Assembly: GCA_015179025.1 (NCBI GenBank)
Contig: WHUX01000127.1
Span: 62,001 to 126,000, forward strand
Direction: 5' to 3'
DNA: 64,000 nucleotides
From: Terfezia claveryi
Taxonomy: Eukaryota > Ascomycota > Pezizomycetes > Pezizales > Pezizaceae
Shown here: positions 1,025 through 63,540 of the stretch, in pieces
How positions within the stretch are numbered: position 1 is the first letter of the stretch
Layout of the letters: the number at the start of each line of letters is the position of its first letter
Made by a program: the position numbers and the translations under genes
The notes under the pieces: model-generated
What the model was told of the DNA's origin: nothing
Database searches by the model: none
Seen by the model: only the letters and a program-made list of their open reading frames with translations

Positions 1025-1140
1025 GTTTTTTTTAAAAAAAAAAAAAAAATTCCTACTCCTATTCAATCCCAGTAAGGGGACTATGAGGAGCCACCCGGAA
1101 ACCCGGGTGGATTTAGACCAAGGCAGGTTAATCGGACGTG
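1025..1140 (-). mobile_element. retroposon 3' tail (two-hairpin family), copy 1
   Basis: Read on the minus strand this is the shared 3' end of the local retroposon family. A hairpin with an 8-bp stem (CCACCCGG/CCGGGTGG, 1091-1110) is followed by a second hairpin (AGTCCC/GGGATT, 1065-1082), then GAATAGGAGTA and a homopolymer run at 1031-1050. No coding sequence is attached, so this is a truncated insertion. Confidence 0.75.
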
Positions 1141-3246: not shown

Positions 3247-3504
3247 AGCTAACTATATCAATTGTTATTAGTGGGAATTTGGTAGGAGGGCTATTTTGTT
3301 TGAGTCATACCATGCTTGAGAAGCCCAAGTTGGTGGTCACATTCTCCCACTACTTGATATGCTCCGCTTCATTGTCCATCATCATCCATAAATGATACCC
3401 AGCCTTTGACACTACCATCAAGGGATGCTGTAGTTCAGGGCTTTTGGCGGACGAAACATATGCCCGGCTTGAAGCATAACTCGGCTTTCGTTTGATTCGG
3501 ATAT

Positions 3505-3595
3505 GTGGCTTCCCGGAGGACAATCCCAACTCATCATGGTTCCCTTACTGGGACTGCATATGAGTACCGAATTTTTCTTTTAATATTAGGCTCTC
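3505..3595 (+). mobile_element. degenerate retroposon 3' tail, copy 2
   Basis: This resembles the shared tail: GGCTTCCCGGAGG, then CATGGTTCCCTTACTGGGACT, then GCATATGAGTA and a T/A-rich end. The first hairpin is eroded and the second retains three C-G pairs plus a U-A pair. It is an old truncated copy. Confidence 0.5.
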
Positions 3596-5947: not shown

Positions 5948-6670
5948 TCAAACCCAAGAACCCGTCAATCGTTTCCCCTCCAATCCCAATTCCTTAACCA
6001 CGTACTCCACAACGTCGCGCCACCTCGCCATCACGTCCGTGCCGACATCCACACGCATGAAGCTCTGCTCCACCGGCTCCAACACCTTCACCCACTCAAA
6101 ACTACCCTTCAATGCATTCACTTGCACTCCGGTCATTGGATGCTTCCACATGAATACATCCATTGCTGGCACCACCACCATACTCTTTTCCACATCCCAT
6201 GTGCGGACCACTCCCCCAAGCAGCCCATCAACACGCCCACCGACCATCTTAGACAAACAGTCCGCGCTCAAGGGCGCGATGAGCAACATATCCGCCCACT
6301 TGCGCAACTCGATGTGGAGGACTGGATCTCCGGGTTTTGTCCATTCTACCCATTCGTCGTCGTTGGTCCAGGCACGGGAGACAATGGGGTAGCGTGTTGG
6401 GATGGCAGTCGCCGGGGAGGGTTGGGTGAGGGTGTCAGGGAGGAAGCGGAAGGAGGAAGGGCTGAGGATAAGGTGTATGGAGAGGCGCGGGGAGTAGGAT
6501 GTCAAGGTGGCGAGCATTTCCGGAAGCTTCAGGGCAGCAATGGACCCAGTGCAGGCGAGGAGGAGGTTCTTCTTGTTGCGGGGGGTGGCAGAGTGTGGAG
6601 AAATGAATTGAGTGTTTGTGATGCGGGGTTTGAGAAGGAAGACTTTGTGGTTGTTATCCCAAAGGTCCAT
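5948..6670 (-). CDS. flavoprotein of the phosphopantothenoylcysteine decarboxylase / Hal3 family (likely pseudoenzyme)
   Basis: The protein has 240 residues. It shows the family fold in order: LLLACTGSIAALK (FMN-binding start, residues ~36-48), RAWTNDDEW (~99-107), GDPVLHIELRKWADMLLIAPLSA (~114-136, with the catalytic-type His at 119), and VVPAMDVFMWKHP (~166-178). In the enzyme family, His, the Asn of PxMN and a Cys in a late Cys-Gly-Asp loop are needed to decarboxylate phosphopantothenoylcysteine in CoA synthesis. Here His is kept, Asn is Asp171, and the Cys position reads as Arg (206). This pattern resembles yeast Hal3-type subunits, which lend His to a mixed trimer or regulate a PP1-like phosphatase. 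I chose the Met at 6670 because it aligns with the start of the divergent paralogue. The frame is open up to 6838. No intron is needed. It is probably cytosolic. Confidence 0.82.
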   Translation of the reverse strand: MDLWDNNHKVFLLKPRITNTQFISPHSATPRNKKNLLLACTGSIAALKLPEMLATLTSYSPRLSIHLILSPSSFRFLPDTLTQPSPATAIPTRYPIVSRAWTNDDEWVEWTKPGDPVLHIELRKWADMLLIAPLSADCLSKMVGGRVDGLLGGVVRTWDVEKSMVVVPAMDVFMWKHPMTGVQVNALKGSFEWVKVLEPVEQSFMRVDVGTDVMARWRDVVEYVVKELGLEGKRLTGSWV

Positions 6671-7696
6671 GGCGATTGAGGTACATACATATATGAGGTT
6701 GGCTCTCAATTGGATGATCTTTGCCCAACAAAGACTACTGAATTTGGAGCTGCTCACGCGAGGGCAGGTTGATATACCCCACCCTGCAGAATCGTGCGCA
6801 CTGGGGGGCCAGAGGTGGCAGCCGCTGGGATGCACCATGGCTGTAAGTAGGCCGGCGTGTACGGGGGAATGATCATGGTCTCACTGCAGCCACATACGCA
6901 TCTCCGTCCTGGCCGCGATCATGTGGGAGGGCACCGCTGCTCGGCGGAGGGTTTCTTGGCGGAAGTCACTAGGCAAGTAGACAGACCTAACTCTCTTCCG
7001 ATACTGACATCCTCAACCTTCGATATGCCTTGTTAATTCTCCCCCCGATCACTACCCATTACCCATGTCAACACCTCCGCTGAACGGCTCCTCGCTCCTG
7101 TTATTTCAGTTCGGTAATGCAAGGAGGATCATGGGGAACTTTAAAGGGATAAAGCGTTTTGAAGTACTGCGCCCATAATAACAGTAAATTCCCCTTTCCC
7201 CCACACTCGGTATCCGCACCTTTTTTAACTTGTGCAGAAGGCAGAAAAAAACTATAATAAAGTTGGGAGGTATATGGGTTATGAATATAATAATATTCCG
7301 GATTCTGCTTGTACTCCAACTTCCTCGATACGATCTCCACAGGATGGACAGGAATAACTTAGTCTAGTTAACCAGACTAAGGAATACTGATACAAAGTCC
7401 ATTCAGAAAACCGTTAGTCGTGCCTAGAACGAAGGGATTCCGGCAGCCAGACTTGAGAGGCCGCGATCTGCCTGCCCAAGCTCGTGGCCTAGGCACGCCC
7501 TTAGGACACTTTTTTCAATACCCGCAATCGACCTAAGGTCATAGGACACTTACTTACGTATGTAGCAAAGCACAGTTCATAAATATTGCACGGTTCCCAT
7601 TCAAGATTTGCAGAATATCTGGCCTTCCAGCAAGCTTCTCTGAATTCAGTTATTTCTTTGGCCAATACAATCCCAACAAGATACACATATACTGCC
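6671..7696. promoter_or_regulatory. shared divergent promoter region between two paralogues
   Basis: About 1.03 kb separates the two divergent start codons. The segments directly upstream of the two ATGs resemble each other (both read ...ATGTAT/ATATAC... then GCCATGGA), consistent with an inverted duplication. A perfect 20-bp palindrome, TAGTCTAGTTAACCAGACTA, lies at 7360-7379 and belongs to a motif repeated throughout the window. No canonical TATA box was assigned with confidence. Confidence 0.5.
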
Positions 7697-8389
7697 ATGG
7701 ACCCCCATGCTAACAACGTCCAATTCCACGCCCCTTCTTCCTCCACGCCCCGCACAAAGAAGCACCTCCTGCTTGCCTGCACCGGCTCCATCACCGCAAA
7801 GAATATCCCCGACATGCTCGCCGCCCTAACACCCTATTCCCCCTACCTCACCATCCACCTAATCGTCACCCCTTGTGCAGTCCACTTCCTCCCCTACACC
7901 CTCACCCACCCTTCCCCGGGGGCAGCCATACCAACCATCTTTCCTATCGTCTCCCGCGCCTGGACTGACGAAGACGAATGGATACAATGGAAGACAATCG
8001 GGGATCCACTATTGTACGTCGAGTTGCGCCAGTGGGCGGATCTGTTGGTTATCGCACCGTTAAACGCGGAGTTTTTGGCAAAGATTGTGAGTGGGTGTGT
8101 TCAGGGGCTACTGGGAGGGGTGGTCCGCGCGTGGGACGTGGAAAAGACGATTGTGGTGGCGCCGGCGATGGATGCGTTTACGTGGATGCATCCGGTGATG
8201 GGGGAGCAGATAGATGTGTTGAGGAATAGGTGGTGGTGGGTGGAGGTGTTGGAGCCGATTCCGGCGAGTTTGCAGGGTGCGAATGTGGACACGGACATGG
8301 TGAAGGAGTGGAGGGAGGTGGTGAAATACGTGATTAAGGAGCTGGGGTTGGAGGGGAAGGAGAAGGAAGCAGTCAGGGCTTTTCGATAG
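7697..8389 (+). CDS. second PPC-decarboxylase/Hal3-family flavoprotein, catalytic His also lost
   Basis: The protein has 230 residues and is roughly 60% identical by eye to its divergent neighbour. The order is the same: HLLLACTGSITAKNIPDML (~23-41), SRAWTDEDEW (~86-95), GDPLLYVELRQWADLLVIAPLNA (~102-124) and VVAPAMDAFTWMHP (~153-166). The catalytic-type His is replaced by Tyr107, the PxMN Asn is Asp159, and the late Cys loop reads QGANVDTDM with no Cys, so no known active-site residue remains. The FMN-binding scaffold looks intact, and the open frame argues against random decay. The ATG at 7697 (GCCATGG context) was chosen over an upstream start at 7586 because the paralogue aligns from this point. 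It could be a regulatory partner of an active subunit or of a protein phosphatase. It appears intronless. Confidence 0.82.
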   Translation: MDPHANNVQFHAPSSSTPRTKKHLLLACTGSITAKNIPDMLAALTPYSPYLTIHLIVTPCAVHFLPYTLTHPSPGAAIPTIFPIVSRAWTDEDEWIQWKTIGDPLLYVELRQWADLLVIAPLNAEFLAKIVSGCVQGLLGGVVRAWDVEKTIVVAPAMDAFTWMHPVMGEQIDVLRNRWWWVEVLEPIPASLQGANVDTDMVKEWREVVKYVIKELGLEGKEKEAVRAFR

Positions 8390-11962: not shown

Positions 11963-12085
11963 ATTTTTAATTTTTGAAAAATAATTATTACTCCTATTCA
12001 GTCCCATTTAGGGGACCATAGGGAACTACCCGGAAACCCAGCTGGAATAAGGACAAGGCAATTTATTTAATCTGCCATGTCTGGC
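11963..12085 (-). mobile_element. retroposon 3' tail, copy 3
   Basis: Minus-strand tail. The second hairpin GGTCCC/GGGACT (12000-12017) closes with a G-U pair. The first hairpin is eroded (CCAGCTGG.. / CCGGGTAG). It is followed by GAATAGGAGTAATAATTATTTTTC. Confidence 0.65.
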
Positions 12086-13959: not shown

Positions 13960-15180
13960 TCCCCAGTCCTTGAAGCTCAAGAATCTCGCGATATCCTGCA
14001 ATTCTTCTCTACCAGCTCGTATCAAGACCCCGCCACGTCAACACTTCATATCCCAAAGTACACTGCTGGCCAATAGGGCCAAAGGTTACTCCCACACCTG
14101 GGTCTCAACCAATCAGCCACCGGGATCACATCACAGATCGACAACCTCACAGGACCACCCAATAGGAACGAGCACCGTAGATAACTCCCATACTGTAGCG
14201 TTGCACTGCACACCGACCAGTCGAACGCAGGGAAAGCGATTCCAGGAAAGGGAAAGAGAAAGGACAATCTGGAAAGATGGATCGCCCACACAAGGCCCGG
14301 CTGCGAGCATCCACAGAGCATCTCATCCACAGCCGCCCCTAAAAACAGCCACCTCTCCCGCCCACCCAATCCACATAGCACAGATAATGCGAGCCACCGT
14401 GGCTGACCGCAACGATTACGAAAGCGACACGGAGTCTGACCACAATGACAGCGGCAATGAAAGTAGTATGATGGAAGCACACTTCGCTCAGTTTGGGTAA
14501 TAACAAAATATTTTGGTAGCTCGGGGGGACATCCCAGACCAAGTCGTCGATCGATGGGAGTTCATTATTAACTCTTTTGGTAAGGACTATCAACAAATGG
14601 TCAAGGATATCGTCATTACCGAGGAGCTCCAAGATATCCGCGAGGGGTTATTGAGATACCTAAGTGAGGTCTTAATTTAATCCCCGGTATTCTACCAAAA
14701 TATCCACCGGTACCACAAGTCCCGCCAGCACCCCCCCGTAATAATTACAAGCACCCAAACCACACCCCGACCCCGGCACGGGCCAAGAGCGTTCCACCAA
14801 CACGGACACCCCTTGCAGAGGCAGCGACCGAATCCGCCAAAAGACAATCGGCTTCCAAGGATAAGGGTAAAATCTCGAGGGCGGGGGCACTACCTCCGAA
14901 CCCTCCAAATAATCCGAGGAACGCAGCAAAAACCCCTGGTTCTCCATGCGGCACCGACAAAATTCAAGCCAGGCCAGTTTCGACCCTGGATCGAGGAGGA
15001 CAACAAAGCAACTGGAGCCCAAATTTTGGGAATTCGCTGGTTGAGGCAAGACCACAGGAGAGCCGGGAAGCTGGTGTCGTCACTGGTGATCCACATGAAG
15101 GAGCGGATCAACCTCGACCAGGGGCTTCGCATGGGAAGGACCGTACCACAGTATCCGATTGGAGCAGATGAGACCGCAGT
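13960..15180 (+). pseudogene. decayed retroposon ORF1, copy B2, with C-terminal RNA-binding-type domain
   Basis: The sequence opens with an ESRDILQFF-type segment (about 13979-14005) and two leader-type motifs (GGTTACTCCCACACC ~14075, GATAACTCCCATAC ~14179). An open N-terminal frame follows to 14500 (KGYSHTWVSTNQ...VDNSHTVAL...), rich in Pro/Thr and ending in the acidic run ESDTESDHNDSGNE. The C-terminal domain reappears at about 14939-15165 as VLHAAPTKFKPGQ, WIEEDNK, GIRWL, RRAGKLVSSLVIHM and GLRMGR. Frameshifts separate the parts, so this is a pseudogene of the family whose intact member lies at 34859. Confidence 0.6.
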
Positions 15181-15535: not shown

Positions 15536-15655
15536 CGAACCTGGCAGATTAACTTGCCTTGTCCCTGAGTCCATCCGGGCTTCCGGGTGGCTCCTCATGC
15601 CCTAACGGGGCCACATATGAGTAACAGCTATTTAAAAAAACAAAAAATCCCTTAA
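15470..15655 (+). mobile_element. retroposon 3' tail, copy 5
   Basis: Contains GGTTAATGACAGCATGGGGG, GGCAGATTAACTTGCCTTGTCC, hairpin 1 (CCATCCGG/CCGGGTGG with one U-G pair), a shortened hairpin 2 (GCCC/GGGGC), then ATGAGTAACAGCTATTTAAAAAAA. It terminates copy B2. Confidence 0.75.
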
Positions 15656-18660: not shown

Positions 18661-18674
18661 TTGATACTTTACTA

Positions 18675-18860
18675 ATTTTTTTTATTTTTTTTAAATACTT
18701 GTTACTCTTATTCGGTCCCAGTAAGGGGACCATGAAGAGCCACCCGGAAACCCGGGTGGGTTCAGGACAAGGCAAGTTAATCTGCCAGGTCCACCGCGCG
18801 GAAAGAAAACCAAAACAATTCGTAAGGCGCAGAGCCCCCATGCTGTCATTAACCGGCTAG
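18675..18860 (-). mobile_element. retroposon 3' tail, copy 6 (best preserved)
   Basis: Minus strand: GGTTAATGACAGCATGGGGG, GGCAGATTAACTTGCCTTGTCC, perfect hairpin 1 (CCACCCGG-GTTT-CCGGGTGG, 18740-18759), perfect hairpin 2 (GGTCCC-CTTACT-GGGACC, 18714-18731), GAATAAGAGTAACAAGTATTTAAAAAAA. It ends the ORF1 copy that lies at 19.1-20.6 kb. Confidence 0.85.
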
Positions 18861-19109
18861 GTGCCAGATGACCTGTAGAGGCCTGACTGAGGCCTGCAAG
18901 AACGCTCGCCAGTAGAAATAGATAACCCCTCGCTAGTGGAACACTATAAACCCCTCGCCAGGAGAAACTGAAGTAAAAACAAAAGTGTCATGACCGCCCC
19001 CCGGAAGTGAGCGAGAAAGTGTCATAAAGGAAAGTGTCAAAAACAGAAAGTGTCATAAAGAAGTGTAGAAATAATCTCCCTATCCCGCCCCTCGCCAGTA
19101 GAAATAGAA

Positions 19110-20610
19110 ACTATCTCGCCCAGTCGTATGCCGTAGTACGGAATAGTCTCCTGCCCATGCGGAGCCCGTGTGTAAGGTCGATTGTCTCCGTTATGTAGAC
19201 GACCAGTGATGACGCCATCTTCCCGATCCTTCTGTCCTCCTTTAAAAGCCAGCGAATTCCCTGGATTTGCGCTGTCTTGTTGTCCTCTTCGATCCAACGA
19301 CGCATCAGACCCGGATCCTCCATCAATTAGCATTTCCAACATATCTTCTGCATTATCATTTAGAGCTGCAACGCACACCGGGCATGCCGCTGCGTAAAGT
19401 TCTCTATCTGATTTATTCCTATATACCCATGATATTACTGTATCCATCTTTTTCTCTACGCAACGCTGCGTTTCCATAATTCGGGGGACTCTTCTGATTC
19501 CTGTGCACCGCTGTACTGATTCCTGTGCACCGCTGTACTAACTCCGGCCCCGCTGTTGCTAGGATCTCTTCCGGATTGAGTCCTCCGCTGCTTATTAGCT
19601 TATGAGCAATTTTATCGAGGTCTAAGTTTTCCCTCATCTGCATCCAAATAGGCACATTTTTAACTTCTTCTATTTCTTTGTTCTTCTTTTCTTCCGGCTT
19701 CTCTTTTATCCTTTTCTTCTTAGGTTCAAGCAGTTTGTATTTTGTTGGAGCCGCGTGAAGTACCACGGCTTGTACTCGCATGGATGGTGGATTTTGGTTG
19801 GTTCGGGGGGGGGGGGTGTGATCGGGGGTGGTTTTGGGGGGGGGGTTGCTTGCGTTGGTGACGTCTTTTTCTTAATCAGCGGTACGCGGTCAGGGTGGAC
19901 CCTCTCCATCCCTTCCTGTGATGGTGGTGGATTACTCGGAGGGTTCGGGGGTGGTCTTTGTGTTGTCATCTTAGCTTCCCATTGCCCTTTCCATTCGGTG
20001 GGGATGTCTTGACAGGCGGCAGCGATATCGTTACTGTAGCTTGTGTGGCGGCCTCTGCGTACGTACGTGCTGGTGTGGGGATAGGCGGATGTGTCTGGGA
20101 CGCCGCATCGGACTGGAGCACCACTACTTCAATCGTCTGGGTGCCTGTGTCTGTCACTGGGACGTCGTCATCATCGTCGACGTCATCGGAAGAGTCATCG
20201 ACCTCCTCTTTCAACTCTTTGATCTCCTCATTCAAACGTGTCTTGCCGCATGAAATCCCTCCCGAAAATATATTCTTTCAGCTGCCAGATGATTCCATTC
20301 TTCCTCTGTCCGGCCGGTGCGCTGGAAACATTGGAAAGGGCACCCTGACGGATATCGTCCGGCACGTTGTGTGTCACCTTATTTTGTTGCGCCAGTAATT
20401 CTGTGAATTTGAAGACGTGATACTTCCAATTATTGGAGGGGGTGGAATATAGACTGTCTTCATACTCCGGGAAGGGGAGATTGCCAGTAAATCGGTACTT
20501 AGTTGGCGAACATGTTCTAACCGGAATCGTTGCTTCGGTAGCGTAAGTAGTGGTGGCTCTACTGGTGATAGATGGTGGCTGTGGGTGCCCCGTGACTGGC
20601 AATCGGGTCT
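19110..20610 (-). pseudogene. retroposon ORF1-like gene, copy D, interrupted by a gypsy protease fragment
   Basis: Read from 20602 downward: LPVTGHPQPP N-terminus, a helical middle (VFKFTELLAQQNK), an acidic run (DDSSDDVDDDDD) at the 19966-20235 frame, TQTIEVVV..TYAEAATQ, a Pro-rich linker, then AVVLHAAPTKYK (about 19735-19770). At this point ~415 bp of foreign coding sequence intervenes, and the domain resumes as PGLMRRWIEEDNK...GIRWLLKEDRRIGKMASSLVVYI...GLRMGRRLFRTTAYDW (19111-19316). Several frameshifts lie N-terminal to the insert. Order and motifs match the intact copy at 34859. Confidence 0.7.
19318..19733 (-). mobile_element. Ty3/gypsy gag-protease-like fragment inserted in ORF1
   Basis: The insert reads as a lysine-rich stretch (KKRIKEKPEEKKNKEIEEVK), MRENLDLDKIAHKLISSGG, ATAGPELVQRC and, after a frameshift, DRELYAAACPVCVAALNDN...EMLIDGGS. 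The ending is the Asp-Gly-Gly-Ser type active-site approach of a gypsy aspartic protease. It sits exactly between Lys and Pro of the host domain's conserved YKPGLMRRW. A 20-bp tandem repeat (CTGTGCACCGCTGTACT) lies at about 19499-19538. No target duplication was evident. Confidence 0.5.
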
Positions 20611-20629
20611 TGAGTGGCGGGTTTACACG

Positions 20630-21640
20630 ATCCTAGTCTGGTTGGCACACACGATCCGTCTTTCCCGGGTTGTCCTTTCTGGAGGAACAAAGGCTTTGTC
20701 CCTCTAGTGACAACACTAGTGGATGGTTTAGTAATGATGGATAAGGTATAAGTAGCCCTCGGAGGACGGAGATACAGAACACACCGATCATATCATATCG
20801 AGATCATCACCCACAACCTGCTCTCTCTCTCACGGCGTGACCTCACTACTCTATCACTGTGACCTTAGTACCCTATATCCTAGTTCCTCTACTTTCTCTT
20901 TCCATTGCCTGGCATGTTGATTGGATGTAACCAATGTATGTGTGTGCGTGTGAGCGGGCAAGGAAATAGGTGGGGCAGGAGGTGTAGGAGTTAGCTTAGT
21001 GTAGATTAGACGGGAGCAAGGTGTGGGAGTTATCTTTGGCCGGGGAAGATTTCGGTGAGAGCGAGGAAGAAGAAGAATGAGGAAGAGGGGAAAAGGCTTC
21101 AATCGAGGGGGAAAGGGTCGCGATAGTTGTTCCCCCGAGATACGAGTAGATATTCCTCGTCCTGCACGTTGTGGTGGGCCTGGATACTTTACTAAGTATA
21201 AGCTTGAGTTTTATTGGTAGGAACTAATACAATGAAGTGAAGGTTTACGACTCCCCGGCGATTCTCCCAAGAGAAAACACCTACGTGGCAATCAATGGGA
21301 ACGAGAAGGCCATCTGCTCTTTTCGAAGGGGATTCTAAAGCCTGACAGTAAAAGTCGCGCAAACCTCCCCCCCCCCTCCCTTGCCCCCTTTCCTTTCACT
21401 TCACATCCCTCATTTTTTTGTTTATATAAATGTATTATATATGTATATTTATACATATATATAACGCCTGTCCCAAAACCTCTGGAAAGACTGTCCTTAA
21501 CCATCCTTATCCACATCATACTTTCTTTTGATTTTGTTACACAGCAAAGGAAATAGACGCACCGAGCCTAGATAATGATCCAATCGATACGCAAGACACT
21601 AGAGCCAACACAATTACCGACACCAGCTGGCTCTCCAGCG
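20630..21640. other. non-coding: retroposon leader (minus) and AT-rich spacer
   Basis: The segment 20990-21070 read on the minus strand holds the leader motif (AAAGATAACTCCCACACC near 21017-21034) upstream of copy D. TAGTCTGGTTGGCAC occurs at 20634-20648. A C-rich run and a (TATA)n stretch occupy 21360-21470. No gene was recognised. Confidence 0.45.
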
Positions 21641-25429: not shown

Positions 25430-28310
25430 AATTAAACACAGAAGCGAACAAAGGAACTCGTGAAAATCCATGTCGATGTGGGGAGGTAAAGCGAGCTCGC
25501 CATGGAAATTATTGAAGGCGGCCACCATGGCCTCAAAGACTCCTTCCTCCACTTCGGCTTATCCAGTTCTACGTAGGTGCGTTTGATCAATTCCCAGAAG
25601 GCTGACTCTTGCACGCTCGAATCGTGGGCACTCGAAGGTCATGTGCTCTGCGTCCTCGACCGACTGTCCGCACACGCAAACCTTGAGGTCCGCTTTGCCG
25701 ATGTGGTGCAGCCTGATTTTCTGGGGCCCTCGATCCGTCCGCATCCATGTGTAGGCCCAAAATGCATGTCGTCCCCATTCTAATTTTCGCATTCCGAACC
25801 CTGGCTTGGATTTGGCCTCCTTCCGGATAGCTTTGGTAAGCCTCCCTCTGTTGCAGTGCAGTTACAACCCTTTATCTGGCCCAGATGAGATTGGAACCTG
25901 GCCTTCTGGTCTGCTTTCTCCTTACTTTCATTCCTATATGGCCTCTTACCCAGGAAATACTTGAAGTCCATTCTATTGGCAAGTCGGACTAGGCTCGCTT
26001 TGATCTCTGCCTCGATCCAGGACCTCGGAGGTGCGCCTCGGCTCATATTAGCGATGGCCTGTATAGCAGCCTGGGAGTCCGAAAGGATGGCTATCATGGC
26101 TGACTCCGTATTGAGGGCTAGGCAGATTGCATGAAGACTCGCCGTCCGCTACCGTAGCAGTATCCCCTAGGTAATCCGTAAGAGTCCTTTAGGATGTCCT
26201 GCCCATTCATGTTGTGGATATTGCCGGCAATTACACTTTCTCTATCCGTGCCATACGTGAAGCACACTCTCCAGCCTTCATCTAGTGATGGAACCTAGCT
26301 GCGCGGACCAATAGTTTCATGCTTAGACCTCTCGGAGGTTGGATCTATTGTCTCTTGGATGGCTTAATGGGCAAACGCCCGGTGTCGTCTCTGTTCCCCA
26401 TAAGATGGTTCGTGCGGGTCCACCGAGGTCTTGTAAAACGCTTCTGCAATTGGGCCGTTCCTCGGGAGTGCGAGTCGCGGCTGTCATACCAGGTGGTGTC
26501 TGCTTCGACAAACTCCTTGATCTGCGGGTCACCCGTATGGAGGGAGGACCGTGCTGCCCATGATCTTGACTGGTCCAGTTTGTCCGTTTGTCCTGCGGAG
26601 GCTGGATATTGGCGATACAGCCCAGCCTCTCATGGCTGCTACCATGGAAGCCTCCCGTAATCTTCTTCATGGCCTTGAATTTCAATCTCCGCATTGGTTC
26701 TAGTTGGGAGCTATGCCTGGTCCGTTGGGCAAATCGGCGCCCCACACGAAAATCGTACAAATAGTCACGGTATAAAGGGCTCTGAGGGCCTTTGGGCTCA
26801 TCCCGCCGTTGGAAATCCCTAGCCTGGTCAGAACCCGGAATAGGCTGGCTGTATTCTTCGCCCGGCGGTTGATGTGATTCTCAAAGGGGGGGTTTCTTTT
26901 GACCTAGATGCCTAAAGTGGTGCAGGCTTGTGCCGGTCCCCTGTTGTGAATCTCTAGTATGCTCTCTTTTTCGGGGTCCCACCTCAGGTCATCCTCTGTT
27001 GCAGCCCCTTCCAGTATATTATAGACGAGTTCCATAACTCTGTCATGGCCTTTTCTGGGAAGATCCGTAATGACCAAGGGGCTGATGTCGTCCACATAAG
27101 AAAAGATCTGGATAGAAGAGGGGTTTCTTGGGGGGTGTTGCGGGGCGAGCGAAGCGTTGCCTCATGTGTCTAGGTGGCGTTACTTCTGCTATGTAGCTCC
27201 TGGTCGATAGAGTTCGAAGACTCCCGCTTCAGTGTGGCCGCCATATTGATTAGCCAGATGACCGGAGACAGGGGGCTGCCTTGTGGGGTCCCTTCATCTT
27301 CATCCATCCTCTTTTTGCCGCGGTGGATTCCATCCCACGCGATCTGGAGCTTTCTAGTTTTTATGAAGTGTTCCCTACATCCGGTGATCCAGTACCCTAC
27401 GCCTCCCCCGTTTAGTATTCTAATGAACCAGTCTTTTGACATTGTTAAAGGCCGATACGATGTCCTTCCCCAGTAGGGTGGCGTTCTTGCCTTCCTTAAT
27501 GGCCTTTTCCACGTTGCAAATGCTAAGGATCATAGCATCGATTGCTGATCTGCCTTTTAGAGACCCATATTGCAGGTTGTGAAAGAGGTGAACCTCGTTC
27601 CGTAGTTCGTCCGCTACTAGCTTCTCCGCCAGCTTGCCCCCGGTAATGCTAATACAATAGGTCCCCACCCTTTGACCTTTCATCAATCCTTTCCAGGCTT
27701 TGGGATGAGCATCGTTGAAATCTCACGCCATGCGGATGGTGTGGCTGTCCCTGCTGCTATCATGGCTATATTGTTCAAGATGGCTATGCCTAAGTTGTGG
27801 TCCTTGGTGCTTTTAAGAAGGCAGTAACTCATACCGTCTGGACCTAGTGCAGAGCTATTGGGGGTTTGCTGAGGGCCCTCTGAACCTTGTCGACGTATGA
27901 ATCATCAGCTTCTAGATATGCTGAAGGGAGTTCCACTATGACTGGCGGCCCCTGGGAAGTTTTTTATCATGACAGGTTGGTGTTTTTGGAATGCTTTGAC
28001 CCTATCCCGTTCCGAGGTGAGGATGGCACCGTCTGTGTCAGTGATGTCCCCTATATTTGGGACGCATTTGGAGGGGTCCCTTAGCGATGCGGAAAATATC
28101 CCAGGAGTGGCGCTGGCCCTGCTCCTCTAAGAACTTGCGCCAGCATGCCCACTTCTTCCTCCTTATAAGCTTCTTGAGATTGCCTGACTCCTTCTCGTAC
28201 ACTTCCCCGGACCTGCTCCGCCTGTTGGTCCTCTCAAGTTCGCTCCTGAACCTCATGGTCCCACCATTTCTTGCTGTGGCCACGGAGGATACCGACTTGG
28301 TGATCATGTG
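25430..28310 (-). pseudogene. decayed LINE (Tad-like) ORF2: linker, reverse transcriptase, RNase H, C-terminal Zn motif
   Basis: Read from high to low coordinates: a linker helix region (SELERTNRRSR..LIRRKKWACWRKFLEE, ~28290-28100); RT core with NLQYGSLKGRSAIDAM and LLGKDIVSAFNNV (27686-27420); RMDEDEGTPQGSPLSPVIW (~27320-27250); the catalytic SYVDDIS (~27098-27080); thumb/connection (26760-26323); RNase H with LSDSQAAIQAIANMSRGAPP (~26090-26020); then AYTWMRTDRGPQKIRLHHIGKAD and CVCGQSVEDAEHMTFECP (25760-25600), the usual C-terminal zinc motif. Frameshifts and stops are frequent. No endonuclease domain is seen upstream, consistent with 5' truncation. Confidence 0.85.
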
Positions 28311-30578: not shown

Positions 30579-31554
30579 GGCCTACCTACATCAAATACTC
30601 GCTAGCAGCTATTTCCAGCAGCTACCGCCGACAGGTCACTGAGATAACGAGAGCAAGCTAAGTGGTGTGATTAGTTGGACGTGTTCAGTTCTAAGATAGA
30701 CCCTCTGGTTGAGCTGTTCACAATATGCTTAGTTATATACTGTATCACCTAATGGGGCTCTTAAGAAGAAGACCCTGCAATTTATCCAATATTCGCCAGT
30801 TCCCCAGCCGGATTTTTAGCCTGCAAGGAATGACATGAGCGACATTCTAACACCTCCTCAGCACATACTTGCTAGGACAAGATATCCAACTCGTGAGCTA
30901 CTACGTATTCCAGACTCATTATATGCACCCAAAATTCGAACGTTAAAGGGATATGACGTGTCTACTTCTCAGCTTGCATGGCCTGATATTTCGAAACAAT
31001 ATGTCACACTTCATGAGGCCGCTCGCCGTACTGCTCTAAGTTTACATCTTGAAGTATATCTTCCGCATTCTGTATTAATTTTCCAATTAGACTTATATTT
31101 ACACCAAACCCTACAATACAGTTGTATTAAATCCGATTTGCATTGTAGTACCCATCCCATAGCTGCATGAATACTCCTATCAATAAAGAGGCACATTAAC
31201 AATGGGACTCGGAAGTGGAACTGATGGAGCATGGTGCTGTTTCATTATTGAGTCGAAGTGCTGAAGTATTTTATTTTATTATCGAGTACAATTCATGTTC
31301 GTCAGCACTGATTTATATTCATCTTCTTTTTTTTCTTTTTCCCCTAAATCCTTTTTTTACCCATTGCTATTTGACCTCCGATGTAACCCCACTAAATTAC
31401 TACATTTGGTAATCACATTCCCAAGGAGGCCAACTCATAATCTGGCCTCCGGAAGAATTTCATTTTTGCATTCGCGTGCAGGCCAGAACATAGCCAACCC
31501 CACGGAGTGATGGCCTGTGAGCAGGCGTGGCAGGGGAGGTGGGGTTATTTCTGT

Positions 31555-31745
31555 TATTTCTTTGGCTGGGTTTCCGGGTGTCTCCCCATGGTCCCTTACT
31601 GGGACCGAACAGGAGTAATTACTTAGTATTAAAGGGAAGGAAAAAAAACAAAAAAAAGTTTTAACAAAAGATTTCTGGGTATGGCTCCCTGGCTCAAACC
31701 CTGTATGAGTAATGAGTATCGAAAAAAAAAAAAAAAAACTACCTG
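31555..31745 (+). mobile_element. two consecutive retroposon 3' tails, copies 7 and 8
   Basis: The first has GGGTTTCCGGGTG, hairpin 2 (GGTCCC-TTACT-GGGACC, 31590-31606), AGGAGTAATTACTTAGTATTAAAGG and an A-rich end. A second, more degenerate one (GGTATGGCTCCCTGG...GTATGAGTAATGAGTATCG plus ~18 A) ends near 31740. Both are truncated insertions without ORF1. Confidence 0.65.
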
Positions 31746-34200: not shown

Positions 34201-34544
34201 GGATCACCATGGCTCACTTATTACTAGTGCTCACGTTCCCAATGGCGAGGTGGTACTTGCAAAGGGAATATACCTTTCTGAATTTCATTTTTTTTTTGTC
34301 TATAACTTCAGAGTCCAACATGAATCTTATCTATCTTCACTTTTGTTCACCTTCATATGTGAAACAGTTATTTGACCATGATATTATTTCTAGGGCCGCC
34401 GCAAACAGATTTCTGGCCTTAGTCTGGCTGGCACAACCTCCCGTAGGGCCAGCCTGCCCAGGAATAGGTATTCATACGTGGGCTGGTGGGCACGGCTGGC
34501 CTCTCCAGGAATTGGCCCAACACAAGTATAGTGTTGCCTCACCG

Positions 34545-34580
34545 CTCCTCATGGCCCCCCTAATGGGGCCGCACAGAGCC
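34545..34580 (+). mobile_element. partial retroposon 3' tail, copy 9
   Basis: CTCCTCATGGCCCCCCTAATGGGGCCGCACAG: hairpin 2 in its GGCCCC/GGGGCC form (34553-34570). Nothing of the A-rich end remains. Confidence 0.55.
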
Positions 34581-34829
34581 GTCCTTCCGTCCTCTTGACA
34601 ATTTCAAGGCAACCACCCACCGCCGACACAGGACGAGCGCTTGGTCGGATCTCAACAACCAGAGCACCTACAGACAAGAGGACAGCACCGTAGCCCTCGC
34701 TGACCACAACAAGAATATCTACACAGAGCTCGGGGGAACAATTATCGTAACCCTTTCCCCCTCGTTCGAAGGCTTTTTCCCCTCTTCCTCTTTCTTCTTC
34801 TTCGTCGCTCTCACAGAAACCCAATCAGG

Positions 34830-34858
34830 GAATTTGTAACTCCCACACAGTACTAAAC
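34830..34858 (+). promoter_or_regulatory. conserved leader motif before ORF1
   Basis: TGTAACTCCCACACAGTAC lies just upstream of the ORF1 ATG and in frame with it (C-N-S-H-T-V). The same AACTCCCACAC core precedes the other ORF1 copies. Confidence 0.6.
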
Positions 34859-35938
34859 ATGCCTCAGAGAAAGAGGAAAGACAATCCCGGAAAGCGGGAC
34901 CGAGTACAACCACCACTCAAGACTCGGCTGCCAGTCACCGGGCATCCACAGTCACAGCACCCACAGCCACCTCATCCACAGTCGGCACATCCACAGTCAG
35001 CAACAGCCACTACTCCCACCCAGCCACATCAGTCACCTTCCCTCCCAAAACAGCAAGCCACCGTGGCTGAGTATACCGCCAGTGATGACGAGGAGTCAAT
35101 TGGATACCAGGAGAGCGACACCAAGTCAGACACCGACGAGTGCTCCGAAGAAGATCCTGCTATATCCCTTCTATTGGGTGGGGGGATTTATCGCAGCCAG
35201 TCGGAGGGGCAGAAAGAAGAAAGTGACACAACCAGAGCAATTTGGTGCTTACGGGAACTCATGAAGTTCATAAACCTCGATCTCGAACCTGTCTTTAAGG
35301 ACGAACCTTTTCGGGTTGCGGCTCAACAGTTTACCAGATTCTTGAATGATAATGGCGCAGCATGGGTTAACGATACCCCACCTTTTCCATCCACCATTAG
35401 TCCCACATCACCACCACCACCGCCAACCTCGGTAACGGATACAAGCACACAGACCATACCTCCAACCCCAGCACAGAAGCCGATGACCAACAGTGTCTCC
35501 ACCAATACGGATCACCCAGTACCCACATACACAGAGGCAGCGACTGGCCAGAAACAATCGGTCAAACCACAAAAGGGCAAAGGCAAAGGCAAAGAGTCGG
35601 CAGGGGCCTCATCTCCACCCCCCCCAGCCTATAGGAAAGTGACGCCACCCCCGAACCCATCTCCCAACCTCAGAAAGACAACACAGGCACGAACACAAGC
35701 AGTAGTCTTGCATGCTGCCCCAACCAAGTACAAACCCGGTCTGATGCGCAGATGGATCGAGGATGATAATAAAAATGCCCAAATTAAGGGGATTCGGTGG
35801 TTGTTGCTAGAAGGGAGAAGGGTCGGTAAGGCGGCGTCGTCACTAGTAATCTACTTGGCGGAAGAAATCAACCTCAAGAACGGGCTCCGCATGGGCAAAA
35901 GACTCTTCCGGACCACAGCCTACAACTGGGATGCGTGA
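34859..35938 (+). CDS. intact retroposon ORF1-like protein, 359 residues (Tad-type LINE ORF1 / non-autonomous carrier)
   Basis: Residues ~1-20 are basic (MPQRKRKDNPGKRDR). A Pro/Gln-rich, disordered stretch with repeated HPQ (~28-65) follows, then an acidic segment (SDDEESIGYQESDTKSD, ~75-95). A helical block (CLRELMKFINLDLEPVF...AAQQFTRFLND, ~128-165) follows. Next comes a Pro/Thr linker with TYTEAATG and a Lys-Gly tract, and then the conserved domain 281-357: AVVLHAAPTKYKPGLMRRW, EDDNK, GIRWLL, GRRVGKAASSLVIYL, GLRMGKRLFRTTAYNW. This matches the RNA-binding-type region of fungal LINE ORF1 proteins, but the Cys-type zinc knuckles that normally follow are missing because a stop comes right after TAYNWDA. 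No ORF2 follows; the 3' UTR and tail come next. A non-autonomous, LINE-mobilised element is therefore likely. Confidence 0.7.
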   Translation: MPQRKRKDNPGKRDRVQPPLKTRLPVTGHPQSQHPQPPHPQSAHPQSATATTPTQPHQSPSLPKQQATVAEYTASDDEESIGYQESDTKSDTDECSEEDPAISLLLGGGIYRSQSEGQKEESDTTRAIWCLRELMKFINLDLEPVFKDEPFRVAAQQFTRFLNDNGAAWVNDTPPFPSTISPTSPPPPPTSVTDTSTQTIPPTPAQKPMTNSVSTNTDHPVPTYTEAATGQKQSVKPQKGKGKGKESAGASSPPPPAYRKVTPPPNPSPNLRKTTQARTQAVVLHAAPTKYKPGLMRRWIEDDNKNAQIKGIRWLLLEGRRVGKAASSLVIYLAEEINLKNGLRMGKRLFRTTAYNWDA

Positions 35939-36195
35939 TGGGACACATTTTGAGCGGGATTTCTTCCTTTTCTACTGGCGAGGGGTTATTAGGGATAATT
36001 TTGTTCTACAAGCGCGCGGTTTTTAAATTTCTTCTACCTGCGAGAGGTTTGTTAGGGTCATTTTCTCTTTCTCACTTGCGCGGGGCTGTTCATGGCCCCC
36101 CTAACGGGGCCGCATAGGTAGTAATTAGTTTTAAAGAAAAAAAAAAATAATGGGCCCGCATAGGAGTAACAAGTATTTAAAGAAAAAAAAAAAAA
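35939..36195 (+). mobile_element. 3' UTR and tandem double tail of the intact retroposon, copies 10a/10b
   Basis: The UTR has TTTCTACTGGCGAGGGGTT-type degenerate repeats, then CATGGCCCCCCTAACGGGGCCGCATAGG (hairpin 2, 36094-36111), AGTAATTAGTTTTAAAG and an A-run. This is directly followed by a second truncated tail (GGGCCCGCATAGGAGTAACAAGTATTTAAAG plus A-run, 36150-36195). Hairpin 1 is absent here. Confidence 0.75.
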
Positions 36196-36260
36196 GTGTT
36201 GCCTCACCGGTGGATACATATGACTCTTGTTACTAGCATACCAGATGTAAACATCAATCG

Positions 36261-57446: not shown

Positions 57447-57620
57447 TTACTTGATCCCTACTACCTCCCCATCCCACACCGTCGCCATGCTTCCTATACT
57501 AATTTTCCCCTTCACCTTGCCTCCTGTGGAGTACCACCCGCCTGCCACTCGGGCTTCCTTGCTTATGCTTCCATCCATATATATTAGCGCCGAATCCTCT
57601 CGAGTTTTTTTGGGGGGTGG
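57447..57620 (-). pseudogene. LINE RNase H start fragment
   Basis: ALIYMDGSISKEARVAGGWY, then TGGKVKGKISIGSMATVWDGEVVGIK matches the beginning of LINE RNase H (Asp-Gly-Ser, then Val-x-x-Glu-x-x-G-I region). It is truncated on both sides and abuts a plus-strand retroposon tail. Confidence 0.6.
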
Positions 57621-57672
57621 TTCACATGGTCCCCTTTCTAGGACAGCATATGAATGATGAGTTAAACAAAAA
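57600..57672 (+). mobile_element. eroded retroposon 3' tail, copy 12
   Basis: GGGGGGTGGTTCACATGGTCCCCTTTCTAGGACAGCATATGAATGATGAG followed by an A-rich end. Hairpin 2 is partly kept. Confidence 0.5.
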
Positions 57673-60457: not shown

Positions 60458-60650
60458 TATATTTTTTTTTTTTTTTTTTTTTAAAACTAGTTACTACCTA
60501 TGCGGCCCCGTTGGGGGGCCATGAGGAGCCACCCGGAAACCCGGGTGGATTGAAGGGGGAGGCAAGTTAATCTGCCGACCCCGCGCAAACTAAGTACATG
60601 GGTGGATGGGAGGCCCTATGCTGTCATTAATAGACTGGCTAAGGACCCGT
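60458..60650 (-). mobile_element. retroposon 3' tail, copy 13
   Basis: Minus strand: TTAATGACAGCATAGGGC, GGCAGATTAACTTGCC, perfect hairpin 1 (60529-60548), hairpin 2 in GGCCCC/GGGGCC form (60504-60520), GCATAGGTAGTAACTAG and a 20-base A run. No ORF1 on this strand. Confidence 0.8.
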
Positions 60651-61800: not shown

Positions 61801-63540
61801 ATGAGCCCAAGATGCATGTTCCATCCGGTCACTCCGGGCTGGAGGGATAGCGGTCGCCTGGTCGTTATCATAGGGGGCGTAGCTTACAGGACCCTAAACA
61901 GCTTTGATGCGTTTAGGGCAATAAAGGTCACACCAGAACGAATGAACACAACAATAGCTAAAGGCCATCAACTACTGGAATTGAACCTGGATGACCTCCC
62001 AGAGTTTACTAGAGAAGGTACATTGGACCAAATCAAAGAGGCCTTAAGAAATCCAACAATGGCAATCCTAGCACTAGACCCCGTAAACGAACAGATCAAG
62101 GACTCAATTACAGTATGCAACCACCCGGGTCTGTTATTCCCTAAGGAAATCGAAATCCCAGACTCACAAGAGTACACCGCCGCCACCGAAAGCTGGGAGG
62201 ACTCAGACTCGGACATAGGATCCGATAGCACAACTAAACCCATAACAAAACCAACCTGCAAGACCCCACCACTGACAACAACACCTGAGGAGGACGCACT
62301 CTCGCTAGGCTTCCTTCCCTATTCGGTAATCCGGGATTTACAGGAGGAAGATGATGCGGCAGCAATTTTCCATGATACAGTGGATTCAGATGATACACCT
62401 GTCCCGAGCCCAACGTTCCACCAATTCCCTAATAAGGCCCTAGATGACACCGCCTCCGAGGAAAGCAACACTTCGATAGCAGGATGGAACAAGTCAGTAA
62501 TGAATGATTGGGATAGCAAATGGGCCCTAGAAGGTGACTGCATTGACCAACTAGAAGTCCTAATCCAGAAGACAGTCACCGTGGGTGTAAAACAGATTGT
62601 CGAGGCCAGCAGGGTAGAGAAAGAGAGCATGGAGGCACATAGCGTAGTGCTGGTAAATATTGCCAATAATATTACAGGGCAGTTTGAAGCACAACTTATG
62701 GAAATTAAGGGAGCTCTCCAAAATTTAGCTGAGACACAGGAAGAGGCTACCAAACTATACTCTAAGCTCAGAAAGACTTTCAATGAACACATGAGGGCCC
62801 AGGGCACAGAACTAACTCTTATACAAGATCGATTTATGGCAGGTCTTAACACAGCAATAGCAGTGATTAGGAAGGAGGAAGCAGCATCCAGAGCAAAGGA
62901 TTCGGAAGACAAACTCAAGATATACGAGGCAATAGGGGAGCTACATAAAGATGTCAACACCATTAAAAAGATAATCGAAACATCCAAGCTATACCCATTT
63001 CAGGCTGGCAGGTCATCCTCTTTTTCGTTGGTCTTTGGAAGCTGCTCGACATCACCACCTTCACCACACTATATACTACCACCACCCCCCACAAGCACAC
63101 TACTACCAACTACAGAAGGACTACAGGGTCTAATCTCAACCCTTGTCTATGAAGTTATAGATCTCAGAAGCATCGAAGATACTTCCAGTCCTTCTCCTCC
63201 ACTACTAGCCTCCATAGAACTAGGACTACCTCTCCCTACCGGTACCATCTCGGCATCCCCAAAGGAGGATTCATTAATGGCAGGCAACTCTATTGCCTAC
63301 AATAAAGAAACCAGGAACCCCACCCTCAACTGTAGCCAGTACGCTCATAATGGCCCCCCATGGGAATGTGGAGGGGCCAAGGCCCTACCTTTAACCACTC
63401 CATTAGGTACCAACAAACCAATAGAGGAAGAGAGGGCCGTCCCTACATCAGAAAAGGCCTCAACGCCGCTCACAAAGGCAGCCACCACCTCCAAAACCCC
63501 CCAAAAACTGCAAGAGAGAAAAAAGATAAAGGAAAGGTAA
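61801..63540 (+). CDS. 579-residue coiled-coil protein, probably retroposon ORF1-like; in-frame stop then open continuation
   Basis: N-terminus MSPRCMFHPVTPGWRDSGRL, then a compact region (VVIIGGVAYRTLNSFDAFRA ... NPTMAILALDP, residues ~20-100). An acidic/Thr linker follows (SWEDSDSDIGSDST), then a long predicted helix (residues ~250-400: LIQKTVTVGVKQIVE, ALQNLAETQEEATKLYSKLR, IYEAIGELHKDVNTIKKII). The tail is Ser/Pro/Thr-rich. The architecture (disordered, coiled coil, no enzyme motifs) fits a LINE ORF1 or gag-like structural protein, but the C-terminal domain of the 34859 protein is absent. The TAA at 63538 is followed by 78 further codons in the same frame (63541-63774) before TAA at 63775. 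The frame is unusually long and clean for this window. Confidence 0.5.
   Translation: MSPRCMFHPVTPGWRDSGRLVVIIGGVAYRTLNSFDAFRAIKVTPERMNTTIAKGHQLLELNLDDLPEFTREGTLDQIKEALRNPTMAILALDPVNEQIKDSITVCNHPGLLFPKEIEIPDSQEYTAATESWEDSDSDIGSDSTTKPITKPTCKTPPLTTTPEEDALSLGFLPYSVIRDLQEEDDAAAIFHDTVDSDDTPVPSPTFHQFPNKALDDTASEESNTSIAGWNKSVMNDWDSKWALEGDCIDQLEVLIQKTVTVGVKQIVEASRVEKESMEAHSVVLVNIANNITGQFEAQLMEIKGALQNLAETQEEATKLYSKLRKTFNEHMRAQGTELTLIQDRFMAGLNTAIAVIRKEEAASRAKDSEDKLKIYEAIGELHKDVNTIKKIIETSKLYPFQAGRSSSFSLVFGSCSTSPPSPHYILPPPPTSTLLPTTEGLQGLISTLVYEVIDLRSIEDTSSPSPPLLASIELGLPLPTGTISASPKEDSLMAGNSIAYNKETRNPTLNCSQYAHNGPPWECGGAKALPLTTPLGTNKPIEEERAVPTSEKASTPLTKAATTSKTPQKLQERKKIKER

What the first reader, a model, noticed from the sequence alone, without database searches (positions are those of the whole stretch)
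18675..18860. Retroposon 3' tail with two hairpins showing compensatory base changes
At least a dozen tails in the window end in the same order: GGCAGATTAACTTGCC, hairpin 1 (CCACCCGG/CCGGGTGG), hairpin 2, GNATARGAGTAAC and an A-rich end. Hairpin 2 appears as GGTCCC/GGGACC (18714, 31590), GGCCCC/GGGGCC (34553, 36094, 60504), AGTCCC/GGGATT (1065) and GGTCCC/GGGACT (12000): both sides change together or through G-U pairs. Hairpin 1 also has a U-G variant (15571). This is direct evidence for a selected RNA structure, probably the site recognised by a LINE reverse transcriptase, shared by copies with and without ORF1.
Basis: partly seen in the sequence, partly recalled or inferred. Interest (0 to 1): 0.75.

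Follow-up and report, generated by a model that had tools for sequence, protein, structure and literature searches.

The report
Structured tail shared with a LINE
In the desert-truffle genome, hundreds of jumping-gene copies end in the same folded RNA tail, and base changes on the two sides of its stems match; a complete copy-making element (a LINE) carries the same tail, so shorter elements probably use it to borrow that element's copying enzyme.

Summary
The hairpins and paired variants are real; "a dozen" copies is an overcount (10 tail-like places in the window, 5 with all parts recognisable). The genome is Terfezia claveryi. GGCAGATTAACTTGCC occurs 752 times there, its reversed control never.

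Paired changes survive a tree-based null. The motif is itself a covarying hairpin; two more are suggested upstream.

LINE copies end in this tail: 8 of 12 LINE 3' ends fetched by endonuclease position alone carry the exact motif, all 8 with ORF2 C-terminal homology.

The tail at 18675 belongs to a non-autonomous element, 18663-21195, with 13-bp target duplications. Its ORF is not the LINE's ORF1 but a passenger protein with a predicted RRM-like domain.

Best reading: a stringent-type LINE tail parasitised by protein-coding passengers. RT recognition is inferred. Fungal precedents exist for tail sharing with tRNA SINEs.

The parts
18663..18675 (-). target-site duplication TTAGTAAAGTATC at the 3' side of the element that carries the finding's tail
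   Evidence: exact 13-nt match to 21183-21195
18676..21182 (-). non-autonomous retroposon (passenger element) carrying the finding's tail
   Evidence: bounded by the duplications; passenger-ORF remnant inside
18676..18704 (-). 3' end TAACAAGTATTT plus A-rich run
18705..18739 (-). stem-loop C: outer stem CUCX..X'GAG, internal loop, inner stem (hairpin 2)
   Evidence: RNAalifold, pair counts, tree null, genome-wide patterns
18714..18731 (-). hairpin 2 of the finding, GGUCCC-CUUACU-GGGACC
18740..18759 (-). hairpin 1 of the finding, CCACCCGG-GUUU-CCGGGUGG
18765..18792 (-). stem-loop A: GGAC-CU-GGCAG-AUUAAC-UUGCC-UU-GUCC, contains the motif GGCAGATTAACTTGCC
18839..18852 (-). conserved box TTAATGACAGCATG upstream of stem-loop A
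   Evidence: present with up to 3 mismatches in 67 of 108 tails
18845..18872 (-). upstream hairpin S1 GUCAU-CUGGC..GCCGG-UUA-AUGAC (outer GUCAU/AUGAC part from single-sequence folding only)
19120..19317 (-). remnant of the passenger ORF C-terminal (RRM-like) domain
   Evidence: protein hit at G000:C32:81120-81317; frame
21183..21195 (-). target-site duplication, 5' side
34531..34544 (+). outer target-site duplication GTGTTGCCTCACCG, left copy, of a 5'-truncated tail insertion
34548..34576 (+). older tail (stem-loop C), interrupted by a passenger element
34561..34573 (+). inner target-site duplication TAATGGGGCCGCA, left copy
34574..36147 (+). complete 1574-bp passenger element nested in the older tail
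34859..35938 (+). passenger ORF, 359 aa, no Pfam match; C-terminal domain predicted RRM-like
36042..36139 (+). tail of the passenger element (hairpin 1 lost)
36148..36160 (+). inner target-site duplication TAATGGGCCCGCA (one mismatch), right copy, inside the rest of the older tail
36196..36209 (+). outer target-site duplication, right copy
1038..1137 (-). tail copy, changed motif
3467..3582 (+). degraded tail copy, stem-loop C kept with X-X' = A-U
11973..12076 (-). tail copy, changed motif
14927..15142 (+). remnant of the passenger ORF upstream of the tail at 15543
   Evidence: protein hit at G000:C32:76927-77142
15543..15639 (+). tail copy with damaged hairpin 2
31534..31633 (+). tail copy, motif lost
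57552..57672 (+). degraded tail copy
60476..60576 (-). tail copy (GGCCCC/GGGGCC type)
25493..28250 (-). old, broken LINE ORF2 copy in the window, without a recognisable tail
   Evidence: tblastn; no tail match there

Best explanation
The tail is the structured 3' end of a family of APE-endonuclease LINEs in Terfezia claveryi, shared by non-autonomous passenger elements that encode their own protein. In the RNA it folds into at least three stem-loops in a row (A, B = hairpin 1, C = hairpin 2 with an outer stem), with probably two smaller hairpins upstream, and is followed by UAAC-AAGUAUUU and a poly(A)-like run. Most likely the LINE ORF2 protein binds this fold and starts target-primed reverse transcription at the A-rich end; any RNA ending in the fold is copied too, so passengers keep the fold by compensatory changes. 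SHOWN: the covarying structure; the same tail on LINE copies and on passenger elements; target-site duplications and A-rich ends; two ORF2 groups with different tail variants.
For: Covariation: 12 of 25 pairs have both-side changes against 6.0 in shuffles; 92.8% of cells paired against 33.0-56.5% when partners are slid. Tree null on 77 tails: outer pair X-X' p 0.0005, hairpin 2 first and third pairs p 0.001 and 0.0005, fourth 0.0115, three hairpin-1 pairs p 0.0045-0.0325. Genome-wide: 150 places with X not C; of 100 listed, 92 Watson-Crick, 5 U-G, 3 unpaired. Stem A core: 7 of 9 changes at position 2 matched at 15, Fisher p 3.4e-6 (listing counted by eye, test); its extension p 0.0005 at two pairs and the same in the single-sequence fold. 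LINE ends: 8 of 12 fetched by position with exact motif, all 8 with ORF2 C-terminal homology; EN and RT domains. Passenger ORF loci on contigs C1-C43: 8 of 11 have a same-strand tail about 0.1-0.4 kb downstream, none with an endonuclease match between (read by eye). Target duplications of 13 and 14 bp around three insertions in the window.
Against: No binding, retrotransposition or transcript data. Tails were sampled by exact motif from the first contigs listed, not genome-wide; 24 of 108 failed the parse and 7 more were dropped before the tree test. In the tree null the share of standard pairs, as opposed to the G statistic, exceeds expectation only for X-X' (p 0.0385) and hairpin-1 pair 5 (p 0.002); 13 of 20 pairs show no significant covariation. 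The outer stem was found on the same rows on which it was first counted. The G-U over A-C excess that would mark the RNA strand is borderline (38 against 22, p 0.052), and at X-X' it runs the other way: 5 T-G against 9 C-A in the listing. Four of 12 LINE windows had no exact motif, and the 8 with it include near-identical copies (L158 with L169, L159 with L160). Six of nine window tails searched showed no target duplication of 11 nt or more within 3 kb.
Confidence: 0.78

Rival explanations
1. The structure is real and selected, but for another step of the RNA's life (3'-end formation, stability, export, translation), and the LINE enzyme simply reads the poly(A)-like end.
For: Most intact tails end in an A-rich run, as in relaxed-type LINEs; no enzyme test exists here.
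Against: The fold is shared by LINE and passenger elements whose bodies are otherwise different, lies next to the 3' terminus, and 5'-truncated copies keep it, down to a piece that starts with stem-loop C between 14-bp duplications. A 3' poly(A) run does not exclude stringent recognition: SART1 is described as stringent and ends in poly(A) (PMC3747384, passage).
Confidence: 0.14
2. The matched changes come from mutation, not selection: template switching inside hairpins during reverse transcription or replication corrects imperfect palindromes.
For: One tail (L092) has the hairpin-1 loop GTTT replaced by its reverse complement AAAC between intact arms, the mark of such an event (1 of 77).
Against: Mismatches at fixed places are kept instead of corrected: a 2x2 pyrimidine internal loop in stem A (pairs in 3-4% of rows), the internal loop in stem C, and in lineage-A tails a bulge whose free base drifts (T 19, C 14, G 4). 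X-X' types occur on several inner-stem backgrounds.
Confidence: 0.07
3. Subfamily history only: each variant arose once in a master copy and no pairing constraint acts.
For: Tail types follow ORF2 groups, and 41 of the 65 listed U-A copies share one background.
Against: The tree-based null rejects independence at several pairs; the A-U type occurs in ten combinations of hairpin-2 arms and flank and the U-A type also in two GGCCCC/GGGGCC tails; all 77 tails of the tree test pair at X-X', 82 of 84 in A1.
Confidence: 0.03

Closest known systems
Stringent-type LINEs with partner SINEs (UnaL2, ZfL2-1, ZfL2-2 and others; PMC4176376, PMC3747384, passages read)
   Same: A 3' stem-loop shared by an autonomous LINE and a non-autonomous partner. 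In ZfL2-1 the stem could be swapped, loop kept, at about half activity; compensatory changes are reported for plant L1-clade tails.
   Different: Here several stem-loops in a row, read from covariation in many copies of one fungal genome; no functional assay; the partner encodes a protein.
Fungal SINE/LINE pairs Mg-SINE with MGR583 and SINE2-1_BG with Tad1-24_BG (table in PMC3747384)
   Same: Fungal non-autonomous element with the 3' end of a LINE; PMC4176376 states that pairs were found in the Tad1 clade.
   Different: Those SINEs are listed with tRNA promoters; the two passenger elements tested here show no tRNA head and carry an ORF. The table also names HaTad1-3 and 1-5; in the one paper found with that name I saw only this table entry.
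HAL1 (half-LINE, ORF1 without ORF2; recalled, one search gave only listings)
   Same: Non-autonomous, protein-coding, lacks ORF2.
   Different: HAL1's ORF is a relative of L1 ORF1 (recalled); here the passenger ORF has no detectable similarity to the LINE ORF1.
ORF1 proteins of I-superfamily LINEs with non-canonical RRM and CCHC knuckle (PMC4641428, passages)
   Same: The LINE ORF1 here has a CCHC-like motif near its C-terminus (seen, no model match); the passenger protein has a predicted RRM-like domain.
   Different: The passenger protein window:34859-35938 ends right after the RRM-like domain, without a knuckle.

Membership tests
Stringent-type LINE with shared-tail partner | autonomous element with endonuclease and reverse transcriptase | tested here: met
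   PF14529 E 1.3e-18 and PF00078 E 9.4e-25 in L043:1051-3327
Stringent-type LINE with shared-tail partner | same 3' end on LINE and on non-autonomous elements | tested here: met
   8 of 12 LINE ends fetched by position with exact motif; L163 tail 93% identical over 132 nt to the finding's tail
Stringent-type LINE with shared-tail partner | conserved 3' stem-loop under pairing constraint | tested here: met
Stringent-type LINE with shared-tail partner | target-site duplications and A-rich 3' end of target-primed reverse transcription | tested here: met
   three insertions in the window; four of 87 short pieces also show a 13-15-nt repeat within 2 nt after the A-rich end (L100, L143, L145, L150); six of nine window tails gave none
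Stringent-type LINE with shared-tail partner | tail required for copying by ORF2p | not testable with these tools
   needs binding or retrotransposition assay
Tad1 clade / I superfamily | RNase H domain behind the RT | tested here: inconclusive
   PF00075 18.5 bits, below the 25.8 cut-off, in one copy (L069); metagenome relative P0077 29.1 bits, above it
Tad1 clade / I superfamily | RT phylogeny inside the clade | not tested
   no named reference RT set was at hand
SINE (tRNA- or 5S-derived) | RNA polymerase III promoter at the 5' end | tested here: not met
   ARAGORN 0 tRNAs in the window; no A+B box set in the first 150 nt of the two bounded elements, one A-box-like site with 1 mismatch
HAL1-like half-LINE | ORF homologous to the partner LINE's ORF1 | tested here: not met
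   BLASTP best E 2.0 and 13; hhalign probability 0.1%
RRM fold (passenger protein C-terminus) | beta-alpha-beta-beta-alpha-beta domain matching RRM structures | tested here: inconclusive

The most novel reading that the evidence does not exclude
A two-part parasite of LINEs: passenger elements that take a LINE's structured tail to hire its reverse transcriptase, and bring their own RRM-like RNA-binding protein, unrelated in sequence to the LINE's ORF1, to package or protect their RNA in cis. Two LINE lineages with different tail variants (lineage A with a deleted base in hairpin 1 and AGYYCC stems, lineage B with GGTCCC-type stems) would act as different locks, and passenger families would follow one lock each by matched base changes.
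Probability: 0.3. Interest if true: 0.68.

Novelty: new variant of a known kind. Interest (0 to 1): 0.52.

Why it matters
The tail-recognition work I could read tests single stem-loops of zebrafish and eel LINEs (PMC4176376, passages). This genome holds hundreds of natural variants of a multi-helix tail, on LINEs and on passengers, with all four Watson-Crick pairs at one position. That is a ready-made mutagenesis series for asking what a fungal LINE enzyme reads. A passenger that encodes its own probable RNA-binding protein would also widen the picture of LINE parasites beyond tRNA-derived SINEs.

Tried and rejected
Rfam: no match in the window at gathering threshold. RVT_1 search of the genome gave mixed elements and its loci were of little use. 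The genome could not be searched by covariance model. LINE ORF1 structure model was poor (mean pLDDT 51.3) and its matches were scattered, so no fold is claimed. Strand test by G-U against A-C: borderline and not used. L163 was first thought not to be a LINE end (no long frame); tblastn then found the ORF2 C-terminus upstream of its tail, 43% identity, E 4e-12. A hairpin S0 upstream covaries but the single-sequence fold prefers another pairing there, so S0 is left tentative. The all-pairs scan also ranked some pairs that fit no stem (for example columns 112-119 and 76-153), so the pairs taken from it rest on stem context as well. Tirmania nivea and Terfezia boudieri DNA, the natural comparison, was not available. 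Considered and rejected: chance, simple repeat, tRNA-derived SINE. PubMed Central searches for a Terfezia LINE or transposon and for covariation in LINE or SINE tails listed no paper on this tail by title or abstract; that library lacks most subscription journals. Read: passages only of PMC4176376, PMC3747384 and PMC4641428; other papers as search listings.

Full report
WHERE. The window is G000:C32:62001-126000 of a 72.56-Mb genome. Protein matches come from Terfezia claveryi (BGX38DRAFT names), and several listed contig lengths (157283, 946814, 426164, 265776, 359397) equal contigs of G000, so the genome is that of this desert truffle.

OBSERVATION. The tail at 18675-18860 is as described, on the minus strand. 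All seven hairpin-2 examples and the U-G variant of hairpin 1 are in the sequence. The count is too high: 10 tail-like places at E<0.05 and 5 with all parts recognisable, with a model that itself contains six window copies. The exact motif is found 3 times in the window and 752 times in the genome, 373 plus and 379 minus, against 0 for the reversed pattern.

SAMPLE. I took the first 100 places listed (contigs C1 to C43). One hundred tails came from loci L001-L008, 87 short pieces, two LINE pieces and the window; eight LINE ends were added, 108 in all. For alignment A1 I dropped 21 loci with gross deletions and exact duplicates and added six window copies, 84 rows. For the tree test 24 of 108 failed the anchor parse and 7 more were removed as misparsed, leaving 77. 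Dropping deleted copies could raise the paired percentage, but should not favour matched over unmatched substitutions.

STRUCTURE. RNAalifold on A1 gave parts of hairpins 1 and 2, a hairpin made by the motif itself, and an outer stem around hairpin 2. In the outer stem CUCX-U...A-X'GAG, the pair X-X' is C-G 61, U-A 14, A-U 6, G-C 1 and unpaired 2 of 84. For the whole structure 92.8% of cells pair, 12 pairs and 88 cells have both sides changed (shuffles 6.0 and 28.9), and sliding partners by 1-3 columns drops pairing to 33.0-56.5%. Part of the structure was derived from these rows, which favours it in the sliding control. The single sequence at 18700-18890 folds into the same stem-loops A, B and C, z -3.98.

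TREE TEST. With FastTree trees and independent-site simulation (2000 per pair), X-X' changed on both sides on the same branch in 5 of 5 cases, or 8 of 8 when the tree was built without paired columns (p 0.0005 both). Hairpin 2 pairs 1, 3, 4: p 0.001, 0.0005, 0.0115. Hairpin 1 pairs 3, 5, 7: p 0.0045, 0.032, 0.0325. The other 13 of 20 pairs vary too little or show no significant signal. By share of standard pairs alone only X-X' (p 0.0385) and hairpin-1 pair 5 (p 0.002) exceed the null (all). P-values are uncorrected; X-X' and hairpin 2 pairs 1 and 3 survive a Bonferroni correction for 20 pairs.

GENOME-WIDE PATTERNS. Without fetching letters, the pattern with X other than C gives 150 places; of the 100 listed U-A 65, A-U 26, G-C 1, U-G 5, A-G 2, A-A 1. 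With X' other than G there are also 150 places; 10 of the 100 listed have X = C (9 C-A, 1 C-U). Some of these copies are also in the sample above. A pattern leaving the motif's stem free gives 225 places; 39 of 100 listed depart from the motif; at positions 2 and 15, 7 of 9 left changes are matched (Fisher p 3.4e-6; two of the seven lie 8.5 kb apart on one contig with the same change and may be one event), at 3 and 14, 2 of 4 (p 0.049). Fisher's test takes copies as independent.

UPSTREAM. In 67 of 108 tails a box TTAATGACAGCATG lies within 110 nt upstream. On these 67, stem A extends outward by GGRN/N'YCC: one pair is G-C 42, A-U 16, U-A 3, G-U 3 (p 0.0005), the next U-A 17, C-G 17, G-U 12, A-U 7, U-U 7, G-C 4 (p 0.0005); the two positions between the stems are mostly pyrimidine-pyrimidine and pair in 3-4% of rows. 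Two small hairpins further upstream also covary, S0 (p 0.0005, 0.0015) and S1 (p 0.016, 0.001). These pairs were picked from an all-pairs scan of the same rows, so their p-values are optimistic; the stem A extension and S1 also appear in the single-sequence fold, S0 does not.

THE LINE. Endonuclease family PF14529 has 71 matches in the genome. Two lay about 3.1-3.2 kb before a listed tail on the same strand, and both LINE copies end in the tail. I then fetched 12 further stretches, chosen from the rest of the list, where a LINE 3' end was expected from the endonuclease position alone: 8 of 12 hold the exact motif, and all 8 have the ORF2 C-terminus by tblastn. Some are near-identical copies (L158 with L169, L159 with L160), so they stand for fewer independent lineages. 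The four without it are L162, L164, L165 and L166. The ORF2 of L043, the element that by position ends in L158, carries EN and RT; RNase H is a sub-threshold match in another copy. Closest solved sequences are human LINE-1 ORF2p and R2.

TWO LINEAGES. ORF2 C-termini fall in two groups. Of 11 close to L159 (54-100% identity in their aligned pieces), 10 end in AGYYCC-type stems with a base missing in the 5' arm of hairpin 1; L003 has GGCCCC/GGGGCC. Over the 77 tails, where that base is missing the opposite base is T 19, C 14, G 4, and where it is present the pair is C-G 33, T-A 4, T-G 2, C-A 1. L163, L004 and L007 (41-46% to L159) have GGT- or GGG-type tails, with GAATA in L163 and L007 and a truncated hairpin 2 in L004. 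The finding's tail is 93% identical to that of L163 over 132 nt and 82% to the C32 LINE over 113 nt. The lineage B sample is three copies.

THE PASSENGERS. The finding's tail ends an element at 18663-21195 with duplications TTAGTAAAGTATC. At 34574-36147 a complete 1574-bp element with an open 359-aa ORF sits inside an older 5'-truncated tail; inner duplications TAATGGG[G/C]CCGCA, outer GTGTTGCCTCACCG. Six of nine window tails searched gave no duplication of 11 nt or more. The ORF has at least 130 matches in the genome. On contigs C1-C43 they form 11 loci; 8 have a same-strand tail about 0.1-0.4 kb downstream and none has an endonuclease match between (read by eye). The protein has no Pfam match, named relatives only in Terfezia and Tirmania beside unnamed proteins of other sources, and no similarity to the LINE ORF1. 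Its last 80 residues are predicted to fold like an RRM, at modest scores.

MECHANISM. In stringent-type LINEs a 3' stem-loop is bound by ORF2p and is needed for retrotransposition, and partner SINEs share it; pairs are stated for the Tad1 clade (PMC4176376, passages), and two fungal pairs are tabulated (PMC3747384). By analogy the LINE enzyme here most likely reads stem-loops A to C and primes at the A-rich end, on its own RNA and on passengers.

VERDICT. It is a new variant of a known kind: tail sharing is known, in fungi too; a multi-helix tail with this depth of natural variation and a protein-coding passenger unrelated to the LINE's ORF1 is what is added.

Noticed in passing
window 34561-34573 / 36148-36160; L163 after its tail; L150: Insertions into older copies of the same tail, at or beside the loop and 3' arm of stem-loop C (TAATGGGGCCGCA in the window; after the L163 A-run comes CGGGGCCGCATAGG; L150's repeat GGGGTAATGGGCC is similar). 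This may be a target preference for old tails.
   Followed up: no
L092 (G000:C11:34831-35096), hairpin 1: Loop GTTT replaced by its reverse complement AAAC between intact arms, as if the hairpin had been flipped by template switching.
   Followed up: partly
window about 19315-19733 (minus): The passenger ORF of the finding's element is split: about 420 bases stand between HAAPTKYK and the GLMRRWIEEDN part of its conserved domain, an intron or a later insertion.
   Followed up: no
window 25493-28250 (minus): Broken, diverged LINE ORF2 copy without a recognisable tail.
   Followed up: partly
window 5948-6838 (-) and 7586-8389 (+): Two ORFs facing opposite ways that look related by eye; the first matches PF02441 Flavoprotein (E 6.6e-20), the second was not scanned.
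   Followed up: no
window 61801-63540 (+): 579-aa ORF without a significant Pfam match; by eye a similar reading frame lies downstream of the LINE tail in L161, so it may be part of a repeated element.
   Followed up: no
L160, second tail about 450 nt after the first: A GGTCCC-type tail without the exact motif follows a lineage-A LINE end on the same strand, another nested or tandem insertion.
   Followed up: no
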